64,000 nucleotides of DNA from contig NZ_CP118574.1 of NCBI RefSeq assembly GCF_028898845.1, positions 8,171,001-8,235,000 of the forward strand, in the 5' to 3' direction. Each line of letters starts with the position of its first letter. The stretch's first letter is position 1. The translations under genes were made by a program, and so were the position numbers. Below, piece by piece: positions 20,077 to 37,170 of this stretch. The notes beneath the pieces are model-generated. The model saw nothing but the letters and a program-made list of their open reading frames with translations, made no database searches and was not told the DNA's origin. Origin of the DNA: Streptomyces sp. WZ-12. GTDB taxonomy: Bacteria > Actinomycetota > Actinomycetes > Streptomycetales > Streptomycetaceae.

Positions 20077-21138
20077 ATGGACGTATTCGAGGGGCTGGCG
20101 GAGAAGGCGTTGCGGGGTGAGGCGCCCACCCGCCAGGAGGCGCTCGCCGTGTTGGCCAGCGGCGATGACGACCTGCTGGAGTTGGTGGCCGCCGCGTACC
20201 GGGTGCGGCGCCACTTCTTCGGCAAGCGCGTCAAACTGAACTTCCTGGTCAACCTCAAGAGCGGGCTCTGCCCCGAGGATTGCTCCTACTGCTCGCAGCG
20301 GATCGGGTCCAAGGCCGACATCCTGAAGTACACCTGGCTCGGGCCCGAGGCGGCGCTGGCCGCGGCCGAGGCCGGAGTGGCCCACGGCGCCAAGCGCGTC
20401 TGCCTGGTCGGCAGTGGCCGGGGGCCCACGGACGGAGACGTGGACCGGGTCGGGCGGACCATCGCGGCCTTCAAGGAGAAGCACCCCCAGGTCGAGATCT
20501 GCGCGTGCTTCGGCCTGTTGTCCGACGGCCAGGCGGAACGCATCCGCGACGCTGGGGCCGACGCCTACAGCCACAACCTCAACACCTCCGGCGAGCGCTA
20601 CGCGGACATCTGCACCACCCACACGTACGCGGACCGTGCCGCAACGGTGGAGAAGGCCAAGAAGGCCGGTCTGTCGCCGTGTTCCGGACTGATCGCGGGG
20701 ATGGGTGAGACCGACGAGGACCTGGTGGACGCCGCCTTCGCCCTGCGCGAGCTCGGCTCCGAGTCCGTGCCGGTCAACTTCCTCATCCCGTTCGACGGCA
20801 CGCCGCTGTCCGACCAGTGGAGCCTGACCCCGCAGCGCTGTCTGCGCATCCTGGCGATGGTGCGCTTCGTCCACCCCGACGTCGAGGTACGCGTCGCCGG
20901 CGGCCGGGAGATCCATCTGCGCAGCCTGCAGCCGCTCGGGCTCTACCTGGCCAACTCCCTCTTCCTCGGGGACTACCTCACCAGCGAGGGACAGGACGGC
21001 GGTGTCGACCTGCGGATGATCGAGGACGCCGGATTCGAGGTGGAGGGCGCCGAGGAGGCGACCTTGCCCAAGCACCGGAACGACACGGTCAGGCCGCGCA
21101 AGCGGGGCGCGGGTACCGACCTCGCGGCGAACGCCTGA
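20077..21138 (+). CDS. bioB: biotin synthase, probable self-resistance copy
   Basis: A 353-residue radical-SAM enzyme that inserts sulfur into dethiobiotin. The [4Fe-4S] motif CPEDCSYC (about residues 66-73) is intact. The ligands of the second, sulfur-donating cluster are all there: Cys in KRVC, Cys in CACFG, Cys in SPCSGLI and Arg in VRVAGG. The substrate/SAM motif that reads YNHNLD in E. coli BioB, and NHNLN in actinobacterial relatives I recall, reads YSHNLN here, an Asn-to-Ser change. The ATG at 20077 aligns with the usual MD-x-F/L start; ATG 20065 is possible. It is 34 bp upstream of the MFS exporter and probably cotranscribed. Next to streptavidin and a biotin transporter, it is best read as an insensitive or extra-dose target; pathway genes bioA, bioD and bioF are absent. 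Confidence 0.95.
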   Translation: MDVFEGLAEKALRGEAPTRQEALAVLASGDDDLLELVAAAYRVRRHFFGKRVKLNFLVNLKSGLCPEDCSYCSQRIGSKADILKYTWLGPEAALAAAEAGVAHGAKRVCLVGSGRGPTDGDVDRVGRTIAAFKEKHPQVEICACFGLLSDGQAERIRDAGADAYSHNLNTSGERYADICTTHTYADRAATVEKAKKAGLSPCSGLIAGMGETDEDLVDAAFALRELGSESVPVNFLIPFDGTPLSDQWSLTPQRCLRILAMVRFVHPDVEVRVAGGREIHLRSLQPLGLYLANSLFLGDYLTSEGQDGGVDLRMIEDAGFEVEGAEEATLPKHRNDTVRPRKRGAGTDLAANA

Positions 21139-21172
21139 CGGCAGCCGGTTCGACCGGGACAAGGGGGACGCG

Positions 21173-34414: not shown

Positions 34415-35620
34415 TCACCCACCATCGTGGCGCTCGAAGAGCGTCGCGATCCCCAGGCCGCCGGCCGCGCCCAGCGTCGCCAGCCCGTACCGCGCCCCGG
34501 CGGCGACCGGATCGCAAGGGCCGAACATGTCGGAGAACAGCCGGGTCACCAGGACCGCGCCGGAGGCGCCCCAGGGGTGCCCCAGCGCGATGGCCCCGCC
34601 GCCGCGGTTCACCCGCTCCTCGGGGATGCCCAGTTCGTCCAGGCACGCCAGGACCTGCCCGGCGAACGCCTCGGTGAACTCCACCAGCGCGATGTCCTCC
34701 AGCGTGATCCCGGGGTTGCGCTTGAGCAGCCGGCGCACCGCCGGGACCGGGCCCCAGCCCAGGATCTCCGGGTCCACGCCGGTCACCGCGGCGTCCACCA
34801 CCCGCAGGCCCTTGGCCAGGCCCAGTTCGCGGAACTTCCGCTCCGAGACCACCGCGACCATGGCGGCGCCGTCGTTCACCGGGCAGGCGTTGCCCGCGGT
34901 GACCGTGCCGCCCTCGGCGAACACCGGCTTGAGTCGGGCGAGTTTCTCCAGTGTGGTGTCCGGACGGGGGCACTCGTCGGCGGTGACCGAGACGCTGCCC
35001 GCCCGGCCGACCCGCACCTCGACGGGCACCAACTCCGCGGCGTACCGGCCTGATTGCGCCGCCGCCAGCGCCTTGCGGTGACTCTCCAGCGCATAGCGGT
35101 CCTGCCGCTCCCGGCCGATCCGGCCCAGCCGGGCGACGTTCTCCCCGGCCACGCCCATGTCCGGGTCCCCGAACTCCTGCGGCACGAAGTGCGGTCGGGC
35201 GTAGAAGCGCGGCGTGCCGTGCGGGACCGGTGGGCGCTCCACCCGCCACGGAGCCGTACTGGAGCTCTCCGCGCCGCCGGCCAGCACCACGTCCGCCCGG
35301 CCCGCCGCGACCAGCCCCGCCGCCAGGTTGACCGCTTCCAGGCCGCTGCCGCACTGCCGGTCGACGGTCATCGCCGGGGCGTCGATGCCGAGCCCGGCGA
35401 AGAGCGCGGCGTAGCGGGCGGGATTGCCGCCGGAGCCACCGGCGTTGCCCACGATCACGTCGTCCACCTCGGCCCCGGTCAGCCCGAGGTCGTCCAGCAC
35501 CCCGGTGAGGACCGGCCGCAGCAGTTCGTGAATCGGCGTGGTGGCGAACGCGCCGCCGATCCGGCCGATCGGGGTGCGTCGTGCCGCCACTACGACGGGC
35601 CGCTGCCCGTTCCCGTTCAC
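34415..35620 (-). CDS. thiolase-family protein lacking the second active-site Cys
   Basis: A 401-residue thiolase-fold protein. The nucleophile loop DRQCGSGLEAV is intact (Cys about 91). The histidine motif GGGAIALGHPWGASGA is present. Two positions are unusual: the NEAFA motif reads TEAFA, and the C-terminal base cysteine, usually in a C-I-G-G-G loop, is replaced (ATLGAAGGLG). It may therefore not catalyse a normal reversible Claisen reaction. GTG start overlaps the ligase stop (GTGA). Together with the adjoining ligase and bioY it resembles the B. subtilis yhfUTS operon, a BirA-controlled biotin/pimelate-related unit. Confidence 0.85.
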   Translation of the reverse strand: MNGNGQRPVVVAARRTPIGRIGGAFATTPIHELLRPVLTGVLDDLGLTGAEVDDVIVGNAGGSGGNPARYAALFAGLGIDAPAMTVDRQCGSGLEAVNLAAGLVAAGRADVVLAGGAESSSTAPWRVERPPVPHGTPRFYARPHFVPQEFGDPDMGVAGENVARLGRIGRERQDRYALESHRKALAAAQSGRYAAELVPVEVRVGRAGSVSVTADECPRPDTTLEKLARLKPVFAEGGTVTAGNACPVNDGAAMVAVVSERKFRELGLAKGLRVVDAAVTGVDPEILGWGPVPAVRRLLKRNPGITLEDIALVEFTEAFAGQVLACLDELGIPEERVNRGGGAIALGHPWGASGAVLVTRLFSDMFGPCDPVAAGARYGLATLGAAGGLGIATLFERHDGG

Positions 35621-37170
35621 AGAACCTCCCGTATGCCCTGCCGCCCGTCCAGAAGGAGGGCGCGCACCTGTCTGTGGTCGATCTTCCCGCTTGGTGTGTA
35701 CGGCAGTTGGTCCGTCTCGAACAGTCGCCGGGGGCACTTCTGCCGCGAGACGTGGCGCGCCGCCCGGTCCCGCAGCTCCGCCCGGCCCAGCCGCGCGCCC
35801 TCCTGCCAGCGCACCACGGCGCACACCAGGTCGCCCCACCGCTCGTCGGGCAGGCCGACGACCGCGACCTCGGCGACCTCCGGCAGCCGCAGCAGCGCCG
35901 CCGCCACCTCCTCCGGGTGCACGTTGAGGCCGCCGCTGATCAGCATGCCCTTCTCCCGCCCGACGAGGTGGAGGTAGCCCCGCTCGTCCAGCCGGCCGAT
36001 GTCGCCGACCGTGAACCAGCCGTCGGCGTCCGGCGCTTCGGTGTGCTCGGCCGACAGGTAGCCGTCGAACAGCATGTCGCTGCGCACGTACAACTGCCCG
36101 GCCTCGTCGACCCCGCGCTCCTCCCCGGTGGGGGAGCGCACCGACACCTCGACGCCGGGTACGGGCCGGCCCAGCGACTCCCACGGGCCGTCGTCGTCAC
36201 CGTGCAGCACGGAGACCAGGCTGAGCTCGGTGGCCCCGTAGAACTCCACGGCGTCGGCGCGGGGGAAGAGGTCAACCGCCCGTGCCCGACGGGCCGGTGA
36301 CCACTTCGCGCCCACCGACAGCAGCGAGCGGACCTGGGGGAAGGTGCGGCCCGGATGGCGGCGGGCATGTTCCAGCAGCGCCTCGAACATCGTCGGTACC
36401 AGGAACAGATGGCATGCCTGGTACCGCTCGATGTGGTCGAAGACGGCCGCCGGGTCGAACGAGGGCAGCAGGCACACGGTCGCGCCGACGTGCAGGGCGT
36501 GCACCGCCCCGCACAGGAAGTGGGAGTGCGCCAGCGACCCGGGAAGCAGGACCGCGTCGGACGGCCCGATGCCGAACCCGTCGGTGTAGTGCCGGAACGT
36601 CCGGATCCAGGAACGGTGCGAGCGCACGGCGCCCTTGGGCCGTCCGGTGCTCCCGGAGGTGAACCCCACGTAGAACGCGGCGGAGTCCGGAACCTCGTCG
36701 AAGTCGTTGTCGACGTCCGGGAGTTGGTGGCTGTCGTGCCGCCGCAGCCAGGCCGCGAAGCCCGGGCCGGCCAGGTCCACCACCGCACCGGGGGGTAGGC
36801 GCTCCTCGGCCGCGGTGGCGGGGGTGTCCCGGAACAGGCGGGCCGGGGGCGTGTCGTCCAGGACGGCGGCCAGTTCGGGGTCGCTCCATGCCGTGTCGAG
36901 CACCATCACCGGGATGCCGGCGACGGCCGCCCCGAGGAAGATCTCCAGGAACTCCCTGCGGTTGCCGAGCCGGACGGCGAGCCGGACCCCGGGGTCGGGT
37001 GCCGGACCGAACTCGGCGCGCAGCGCCCGTGCCACGGTGAGTGCGCCGCGCCGCAGTGTGTGGTAGCTCCACTGGTGCGGGCCGCCGTCGCCGCCCAGGG
37101 CGAGCGCTACCCGGTCCGGTGCGGTGGTGGCGTGGGAGAGGAATCCGCTGGCGATCGTCATCGGCGTCAT
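35617..37170 (-). CDS. acyl-CoA ligase (ANL family), YhfT-like
   Basis: A 517-residue AMP-forming ligase. Motifs: VGFTSGSTGRPKGAVRSH (about residues 172-189), LPGSLAHSHFLCGAVHAL, VEFYGATELS (A5), FTVGDIGRLDERGYLHLVGR (A7-A8) and PYTPSGKIDHRQ with the catalytic Lys. It probably makes an acyl-CoA from a fatty or dicarboxylic acid. It is the first gene of the biotin-uptake operon; the counterpart in B. subtilis is yhfT next to bioY2 and yhfS. A pimelate-supplying role fits both biotin synthesis and the NRPS (inference). ATG at 37170; a second ATG lies three codons on. Confidence 0.88.
   Translation of the reverse strand: MTPMTIASGFLSHATTAPDRVALALGGDGGPHQWSYHTLRRGALTVARALRAEFGPAPDPGVRLAVRLGNRREFLEIFLGAAVAGIPVMVLDTAWSDPELAAVLDDTPPARLFRDTPATAAEERLPPGAVVDLAGPGFAAWLRRHDSHQLPDVDNDFDEVPDSAAFYVGFTSGSTGRPKGAVRSHRSWIRTFRHYTDGFGIGPSDAVLLPGSLAHSHFLCGAVHALHVGATVCLLPSFDPAAVFDHIERYQACHLFLVPTMFEALLEHARRHPGRTFPQVRSLLSVGAKWSPARRARAVDLFPRADAVEFYGATELSLVSVLHGDDDGPWESLGRPVPGVEVSVRSPTGEERGVDEAGQLYVRSDMLFDGYLSAEHTEAPDADGWFTVGDIGRLDERGYLHLVGREKGMLISGGLNVHPEEVAAALLRLPEVAEVAVVGLPDERWGDLVCAVVRWQEGARLGRAELRDRAARHVSRQKCPRRLFETDQLPYTPSGKIDHRQVRALLLDGRQGIREVL

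What the first reader, a model, noticed from the sequence alone, without database searches (positions are those of the whole stretch)
20077..37170. A biotin-warfare locus: streptavidin embedded in an NRPS gene cluster with BioB and a biotin importer
Seen: an intact streptavidin gene (31758-32315) with every biotin-contact residue conserved, flanked by bioB, an exporter, an SDR, a cysteine-type heterocyclising NRPS, a fatty-acyl-AMP ligase and a P450 on one side and by bioN-bioY-bioM on the other. Known: streptavidin is produced together with small biotin antimetabolites (stravidins) and acts synergistically with them. Inference: here the partner molecule is made by a different, NRPS-based pathway, and the same locus carries self-protection (extra biotin synthase, exporter, high-affinity biotin uptake). 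A streptavidin locus with this gene set is not one I recognise.
Basis: partly seen in the sequence, partly recalled or inferred. Interest (0 to 1): 0.95.

Follow-up and report, generated by a model that had tools for sequence, protein, structure and literature searches.

The report
Acidomycin–streptavidin locus with spare target
Next to its streptavidin gene, a Streptomyces carries genes predicted to make acidomycin, an antibiotic that blocks biotin synthesis, together with a second copy of the enzyme acidomycin hits and a biotin pump, which likely keep the producer itself alive.

Summary
In detail: one intact streptavidin gene lies between bioB–MFS–SDR–Cys-NRPS–FAAL/P450 and a bioM–bioY–bioN–thiolase–ligase operon. 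The locus also runs on to a second NRPS–PKS cluster (to 50503). The NRPS half is not a new pathway: it is the acidomycin cluster (acd; 69–82% identical, gene for gene, to three named Streptomyces), followed by nda (the amino acid ANDA). Both, and streptavidin's binding of acidomycin, were published in 2026. What the main text of those papers does not describe is the escort. First, a bioB heads the acd operon; it belongs to a clade apart from 33 presumed housekeeping Streptomyces BioBs, and its kin share contigs with acd in two other strains. Second, there is an extra BioNYM-type biotin importer with MkpE/MkpF homologues. BioY nearer to it than the core Streptomyces BioY occurs in 3 of 392 genomes: here and in two clusters resembling S. 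lydicus mdb, whose product also hits BioB. Best reading: acd+nda with a self-protection escort; production, BioB tolerance and uptake are inferred. With one avidin gene and no stravidin marker, it is not the published two-streptavidin "nexus". New variant of a known kind.

The parts
20077..21138 (+). bioB, second biotin synthase of the genome; first gene of the acd operon
   Evidence: TIGR00433 368.7 bits, cut-off 225; other copy at C1:1456443, 70%; clade apart from Streptomyces primaries
21173..22357 (+). MFS exporter of acd
   Evidence: MFS_1 E 1.3e-47; 73-80% to three acd loci
22480..23304 (+). SDR of acd (AcdB-like)
   Evidence: adh_short E 8e-45; 74-76% to three acd loci
23318..28120 (+). 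NRPS of acd (AcdC-like): CP-Cy-A(Cys)-PCP-epimerase-like domain; true start uncertain (open from 23270)
   Evidence: Pfam domains; 69.5-70% to three acd loci; motifs compared in 5 sequences
28117..29865 (+). acyl-AMP ligase of acd (AcdD-like)
   Evidence: AMP-binding E 1.3e-62; fatty acyl-AMP ligase models below their cut-offs; 74-75% to three acd loci
29923..31308 (-). cytochrome P450 of acd (AcdE-like)
   Evidence: p450 E 1.1e-66; 79-82% to three acd loci
31758..32315 (+). streptavidin, Sav1-like
   Evidence: 72% to sav1-position gene, 59% to sav2-position gene of G039
32399..33079 (-). bioM, ECF ATPase
   Evidence: ABC_tran E 2.3e-27; ECF ATPase models below cut-off; 79% in S. olivoreticuli
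33076..33642 (-). bioY, biotin S component
   Evidence: BioY E 1.4e-35; 4dve E 3e-24, FLPGD motif kept
33761..34408 (-). bioN, ECF T component
   Evidence: CbiQ E 3.4e-14; 64% in S. olivoreticuli
34415..35620 (-). thiolase, MkpF homologue
   Evidence: Thiolase_N E 1.6e-70; 85.6% to the S. virginiae gene at the mkpF position
35617..37170 (-). acyl-CoA ligase, MkpE homologue
   Evidence: AMP-binding E 6.6e-62; 72% to the S. virginiae gene at the mkpE position, 64% in S. olivoreticuli
37625..42997 (+). NRPS of nda (A-PCP-C-A-PCP); open frame, homology starts at residue 113
   Evidence: 71% to S. virginiae nda NRPS
42994..48381 (+). PKS of nda (KS-AT-KR-DH-ACP by Pfam)
   Evidence: 69% to S. virginiae
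48378..49115 (+). thioesterase of nda
   Evidence: 75%
49112..50503 (+). MFS exporter of nda
   Evidence: 76%

Best explanation
The locus is a streptavidin-linked acidomycin (acd) gene cluster followed by an ANDA (nda) cluster, and is predicted to make the BioB inhibitor acidomycin while its extra BioB, its BioNYM importer and its streptavidin likely protect the producer. Predicted chemistry, by orthology with the pathway proposed in print: AcdD activates pimelate onto the first carrier domain of AcdC; AcdC's Cy and A(Cys) domains condense it with cysteine to a thiazoline; the SDR and P450 turn it into the 4-thiazolidinone; the MFS protein exports it. Streptavidin of relatives is published to bind both biotin and acidomycin. 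Inferred here: the second BioB, first gene of the acd operon, keeps converting dethiobiotin when the housekeeping BioB is blocked, and the extra importer brings in preformed biotin and so bypasses BioB. The MkpE/MkpF ligase and thiolase go with the importer; their substrate is unknown, most likely an omega-carboxylic acid of the pimelate/biotin type.
For: Five acd genes at 69-82% identity in the same order in S. virginiae, S. amritsarensis and S. olivoreticuli, with streptavidin close by; acd proven by knock-out and heterologous expression in relatives (PMC13111796, PMC13336041). Cysteine-code residues and both carrier serines kept. nda genes 69-76% to S. virginiae. bioB is 34 bp upstream of the exporter on the same strand and has the conserved Fe-S cysteines and arginine. 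BioBs of its clade share contigs of identical length with acd P450 in S. tubercidicus and Kitasatospora NPDC056138. A BioY nearer to the window's than core BioY is in 3 of 392 Streptomyces, all 3 among the 5 genomes with two BioB hits (Fisher 1e-6), and in S. olivoreticuli beside acd. Both cluster kinds with the escort make, or are predicted to make, BioB inhibitors.
Against: No product, expression or enzyme data for this strain. S. virginiae and S. amritsarensis make do with neither a second BioB nor an extra BioY, and S. olivoreticuli has no second BioB, so the escort is optional. The mdb-type BioY is only 48-50% identical to the window's and its BioB is from another clade, so this is not one inherited cassette. 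Importing biotin beside a secreted biotin trap is an unresolved tension. The RLA021 cluster has a phosphopantetheinyl transferase gene next to the P450; none is among the 17 proteins scanned here. Ligase and thiolase have no tested role.
Confidence: 0.7

Rival explanations
1. The clustered BioB is biosynthetic: like MybB in the report of Zhao et al. 2025 (seen only as cited and disputed in the two 2026 papers), it inserts sulfur to form the thiazolidinone ring, and sits in the operon for that reason.
For: bioB is the first gene of the acd operon here; BioBs of this clade recur in acd strains; a BioB-type route to the compound has been claimed (cited).
Against: acd without bioB suffices in heterologous hosts and cysteine labels the product (PMC13336041), though those hosts have their own BioB; S. 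virginiae, S. amritsarensis and S. olivoreticuli have no second BioB; the cysteine NRPS is intact here.
Confidence: 0.1
2. The importer-ligase-thiolase operon is a feeding or catabolic module, not a bypass: it takes up pimelate-like acids or biotin vitamers, activates them as CoA thioesters, and supplies the starter acid or degrades biotin or the antibiotic.
For: Ligase and thiolase are translationally coupled to each other and 6 bp from bioN (coordinates); the ligase stays with bioNYM in S. olivoreticuli and both stay with it in G196 and G362; mkpE and mkpF are dispensable for alpha-methyl-KAPA (PMC13336041).
Against: BioY keeps the FLPGD stretch of a solved biotin transporter, which fits biotin rather than pimelate; no other beta-oxidation gene was named in the cluster.
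Confidence: 0.3
3. The core makes an acidomycin congener with a different acyl chain rather than acidomycin itself.
For: 30% divergence of AcdC from proven ones; a shorter-chain congener is reported from the RLA021 cluster.
Against: The ligase is 74-75% identical to the proven loci; linkage to BioB-directed genes argues for a biotin-like chain length.
Confidence: 0.15
4. Ordinary housekeeping biotin genes lie next to a secondary-metabolite cluster by chance.
For: BioB and BioY are common families.
Against: The genome has a separate bioB with bioA/bioD/bioF-like neighbours 6.7 Mb away and a core BioY at C1:5885101 (neighbours named by eye). The window copies fall in other clades.
Confidence: 0.03

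Closest known systems
acd acidomycin cluster of S. virginiae, S. avidinii and Streptomyces sp. RLA021 (PMC13336041, PMC13111796)
   Same: MFS-SDR-NRPS-ligase-P450 in the same order, 69-80% identical to S. virginiae; streptavidin linked
   Different: the gene upstream of the exporter is bioB, not sav2; streptavidin is Sav1-like and lies beyond the P450; extra BioNYM operon; no phosphopantetheinyl transferase found
nda (ANDA) cluster of S. virginiae (PMC13336041)
   Same: NRPS, PKS, TE and MFS, 69-76% identical
   Different: separated from acd here by streptavidin and the BioNYM operon
"Streptavidin BGC Nexus" (PMC13336041)
   Same: acd, nda, a streptavidin gene and mkpE/mkpF homologues together
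   Different: one avidin gene in the genome, no stravidin marker, no mkpBCDG in the window, housekeeping bioB 6.7 Mb away
mdb (alpha-methyldesthiobiotin) cluster of S. lydicus (PMC13336041) and the similar G196/G362 clusters
   Same: second bioB and, in G196/G362, bioM-N-Y-ligase-thiolase
   Different: makes a different BioB inhibitor, carries bioA and bioD too, no streptavidin; BioB and BioY from other clades
S. olivoreticuli acd locus
   Same: acd plus ligase-bioN-bioY-bioM plus streptavidin side by side
   Different: no second bioB in the genome; no thiolase and no nda hit in the 60 kb examined

Membership tests
acd (acidomycin) cluster | MFS-SDR-NRPS-AMP ligase-P450 gene set | tested here: met
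   69-82% identity in order to three named loci
acd (acidomycin) cluster | CP-Cy-A(Cys)-CP NRPS | tested here: met
   Pfam; Cy motif, cysteine-code residues (code recalled) and carrier serines shared with four orthologues
acd (acidomycin) cluster | phosphopantetheinyl transferase next to the P450 (RLA021 table) | tested here: not met
   no such family among the 17 proteins scanned; not among the genes shown to be needed
acd (acidomycin) cluster | makes acidomycin | not testable with these tools
   needs LC-MS
nda (ANDA) cluster | two-A-domain NRPS, PKS, TE, transporter | tested here: met
Streptavidin BGC Nexus | two streptavidin genes flanking the clusters | tested here: not met
   one avidin gene in the genome
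Streptavidin BGC Nexus | stravidin (sta) cluster | tested here: not met
   one sta marker protein: 92-93% in G039 and G452, 32% in this genome
Streptavidin BGC Nexus | mkp cluster | tested here: not met
   only mkpE/mkpF-position homologues in the window; mkpA and mkpC hits are 32-39% to other genes; rest of the genome not searched
mdb cluster | mkpBCDG with bioADB | tested here: not met
   absent from the window; BioB not of the mdb-type clade
BioMNY biotin ECF transporter | A, T and S components together | tested here: met
   NCBIfam T and ATPase models below their cut-offs
BioMNY biotin ECF transporter | transports biotin | not testable with these tools
   only similarity to 4dve
BioB biotin synthase | equivalog model and catalytic residues | tested here: met
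   TIGR00433 above cut-off; CxxxCxxC, the residues aligned to E. coli C97, C128, C188 and R260 kept (numbers recalled)
Self-resistance by a duplicated target | second target copy in the cluster | tested here: met
Self-resistance by a duplicated target | cluster copy insensitive to the product | not testable with these tools
   only sequence differences at or near catalytic motifs

The most novel reading that the evidence does not exclude
Producers of BioB inhibitors have repeatedly acquired the same two-part immunity: a foreign, inhibitor-tolerant BioB plus a dedicated high-affinity biotin importer. Here it guards acidomycin alongside streptavidin; in mdb-type clusters it guards alpha-methyldesthiobiotin. 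The acd-type BioB clade would then be a natural acidomycin-tolerant biotin synthase and a genome-mining beacon for unknown BioB inhibitors.
Probability: 0.4. Interest if true: 0.68.

Novelty: new variant of a known kind. Interest (0 to 1): 0.5.

Why it matters
Acidomycin is an antimycobacterial lead whose target is BioB. How its makers avoid poisoning themselves has in the papers read here been put down to streptavidin binding. This locus adds two testable routes, a second BioB and a biotin bypass, and shows that such an escort recurs beside a chemically different BioB inhibitor. It also bears on the dispute over whether a BioB-type enzyme (MybB) or the NRPS builds the acidomycin ring, because here a BioB is part of the operon. 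And it suggests that MkpE and MkpF, found dispensable for alpha-methyl-KAPA, belong functionally with the importer.

Tried and rejected
Rejected: a new NRPS pathway (acd and nda have proven orthologues). Rejected: bioNYM as the housekeeping importer (a core BioY lies elsewhere, 37% identical). Rejected: the extra BioB as a recent copy of the genome's own bioB (different clades). Rejected: one cassette shared by descent between acd and mdb loci (BioB tree; BioY tree, with long branches). P450 homologues at 47-63% (L052-L061 and G370's L062) were checked as further acd loci: none shows the acd NRPS in the stretch held. A shared operator upstream of bioB, sav, the ligase and the primary bioB was sought; nothing convincing. 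Not followed: the second BioB hits of G224 and G415 (G415 has 7% contamination). Chosen subsets: the BioB tree used 48 rows (12 of the 120 listed), the BioY tree 33 rows (22 of the 120 listed).
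Full report
WHAT IS THERE. The window lies at 8,171,001-8,235,000 of a 9.17 Mb contig in a 9.55 Mb genome. It is Streptomyces: G042, placed in its genus, holds the same 197,400-bp contig as S. virginiae NRRL ISP-5094. Gene calls and Pfam give, left to right: bioB, MFS, SDR, NRPS, acyl-AMP ligase (+; 20077-29865), P450 (-), streptavidin (+), then on the - strand ligase-thiolase-bioN-bioY-bioM (37170 down to 32399), then on + an NRPS, a PKS, a thioesterase and an MFS (37625-50503). 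Spacing suggests operons: bioB ends 34 bp before the MFS; NRPS/AMP ligase, bioY/bioM, thiolase/ligase and the four nda genes overlap by 4 bp each (coordinates). None of the 17 frames checked has an internal stop.

STREPTAVIDIN. One avidin gene was found in the genome. It is Sav1-like: 72% to the gene at the sav1 position and 59% to that at the sav2 position of G039, a genome whose layout (two avidins 36 kb apart, bioB 27 kb further) matches the published S. avidinii. Contact residues as recalled are all kept in the alignment to solved streptavidins.

THE NRPS HALF IS ACIDOMYCIN. A scan of named genomes with the P450 returned 13 loci. Three (S. virginiae NRRL ISP-5094, S. amritsarensis MTCC 11845, S. 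olivoreticuli ATCC 31159) carry the whole MFS-SDR-NRPS-AMP ligase-P450 set at 69-82% identity and a streptavidin gene close by. The other ten have a P450 at 47-63% and no acd NRPS in the stretch held. In 392 Streptomyces the P450 at >=80% is in 3, avidin in 11, and the 3 are within the 11 (Fisher 1.7e-5, relatedness not corrected); 8 of 11 avidin genomes have no such P450, so streptavidin often stands without acd. PMC13111796 (parts 1, 3 and 4 of 6 read, plus passages) proves the cluster in strain RLA021 by NRPS knock-out and heterologous expression. PMC13336041 (outline, Results parts 1-2 of 3, Discussion, second half of the reference list, passages) expresses acd from S. virginiae and S. avidinii and shows streptavidin binding acidomycin. 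In the window's NRPS the loading-carrier serine, the Cy motif, the cysteine-code residues (code recalled) and the second carrier are kept, as in four orthologues.

THE SECOND HALF IS NDA. NRPS (A-PCP-C-A-PCP), PKS, TE and MFS are 69-76% identical to the S. virginiae set that makes ANDA (PMC13336041).

WHAT IS MISSING FROM THE PUBLISHED NEXUS. One stravidin marker protein matches at 92-93% in G039 and S. amritsarensis but at 32% here and in S. olivoreticuli. Of 32 gene calls from the S. virginiae nda-sta-mkp-sav1 end (some of them spurious frames), seven hit the window at E<=1e-15: the ligase (72%), the thiolase (85.6%), sav (70%), two frames antisense to the nda NRPS, and two weak cross-hits (an MFS 39%, a ketosynthase 32%). 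By gene order the ligase and thiolase are mkpE and mkpF. The housekeeping bioB, with bioA-, bioD- and bioF-like neighbours named by eye, is 6.7 Mb away.

THE ESCORT: BIOB. The nearest relatives found are NPDC090442 (98%), S. tubercidicus (82%), Kitasatospora NPDC056138 (80%), then 77% or less. These four group together (98/92, with one long-branch Sphaerisporangium row inside), next to an Amycolatopsis MAG, an Actinokineospora and an unnamed metagenome BioB, apart from 33 presumed primary Streptomyces BioBs and the two mdb-type BioBs. For S. tubercidicus, BioB, BioY and acd P450 all lie on contigs of 736,209 bp; for Kitasatospora NPDC056138, BioB and P450 on 255,545 bp. Identical length is taken as the same contig; distance is unknown. 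NPDC056138 is an acd strain named in PMC13111796. NPDC090442 was not tied to acd by any search. At 14 positions all 4 of this group share a residue found in at most 1 of the 33 primaries. Among them 112, 145 and 165 align to E. coli A100, L131 and N151 (E. coli numbers by subtracting the tag). N151 opens the NHNLD motif, whose N153 and D155 I recall as substrate/SAM contacts. Positions 112 and 145 are shared with the Amycolatopsis/Actinokineospora group, and serine at 165 also occurs in the Sphaerisporangium row (by eye), so the pattern is not exclusive. Insensitivity is a hypothesis.

THE ESCORT: IMPORTER. In one search, 34 of 36 other same-genus genomes have a BioY hit, mostly 32-40% identical; this genome has such a core copy at C1:5885101 (37%) as well. 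A BioY nearer to the window's (E<=1e-35) is in 3 of 392 Streptomyces: this one, G196 (50%) and G362 (48%). By my reading of the per-genome column, five genomes have two BioB hits (G000, G196, G224, G362, G415), and the three are among them (Fisher 1e-6). G196 and G362 each hold, within about 14-17 kb, mkpB-, mkpC-, mkpD- and mkpG-like genes, bioA-bioD-bioB (bioA and bioD by eye) and bioM-N-Y-ligase-thiolase: the content published for S. lydicus mdb plus the importer. S. olivoreticuli carries ligase-bioN-bioY-bioM and then streptavidin beside acd. NPDC002537 has BioY and P450 on contigs of the same length (76,317 bp); NPDC001135 has them on different contigs. The BioY tree puts window, NPDC001135, NPDC002537 and S. 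olivoreticuli among Pseudonocardiales- and Nocardia-type BioYs, with mdb-type and core BioYs elsewhere; long branches make deep joins unsure. S. virginiae and S. amritsarensis have only the core BioY.

HOW IT LIKELY WORKS. Shown: gene content, orthology, linkage. Published for relatives: acidomycin synthesis, BioB inhibition (PMC11099021, passages only: Ki given as 0.11 and 0.27 uM for the mycobacterial enzyme), streptavidin neutralising acidomycin. Inferred: the second BioB is a spare target, the importer a bypass, and streptavidin a sink for the drug and a trap for biotin. The pattern that fits is that both kinds of cluster with the bioB+BioNYM escort make, or are predicted to make, BioB inhibitors. 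The main tension is biotin import beside a secreted biotin trap; the main gap is the ligase/thiolase.

LITERATURE LIMIT. 'bioy' has no hit in the main text of either acd paper, and 'uptake', 'import' and 'thiolase' none in PMC13336041. Acidomycin+BioY in the library gives one review (listing only); two further searches add nothing. Supplements and the 2025 preprint on a "biosynthetic megacluster" were not readable, so absence from print is not claimed.

Noticed in passing
window 23318-28120, residue 1302 on: AcdC ends in an epimerase-like condensation domain whose catalytic motif reads HWLVMDYY instead of the HHxxxDG type (recalled); HWLVMDYY is the same in all 5 AcdC sequences compared, so it may serve the unexplained release step.
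   Followed up: partly
G452:C90:13584-15620 (S. amritsarensis MTCC 11845): A stravidin marker protein is present at 92%, whereas PMC13111796 lists S. amritsarensis JCM 19660 among strains lacking the stravidin cluster.
   Followed up: no
window 34415-35620; G042:C7:166924-168123: PMC13336041 calls MkpF FabH-like, but the gene at that position is 85.6% identical to a clear thiolase (Thiolase_N/C).
   Followed up: no
window 24689 and 38006: Single TTA codons in the acd NRPS (codon 458) and the nda NRPS frame (codon 128; start uncertain), possible bldA control.
   Followed up: no
window 32341-32366 and 37600-37623: Perfect inverted repeats: one between the convergent sav and bioM genes, terminator-like; one just upstream of the nda frame.
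   Followed up: no
window 18779-19780: A TetR-type regulator lies just upstream of bioB on the same strand; whether it controls the operon is unknown.
   Followed up: no
L067 (G217:C1:3800400-3820399): A streptavidin 60% identical to the window's with no acd, nda, sta or mkp homologue found in 20 kb.
   Followed up: partly
L139-L142 (G362:C15, G196:C1): The two mdb-type clusters also share an oxidoreductase-like and a small thioesterase-like gene between bioA and bioM (names by eye).
   Followed up: no
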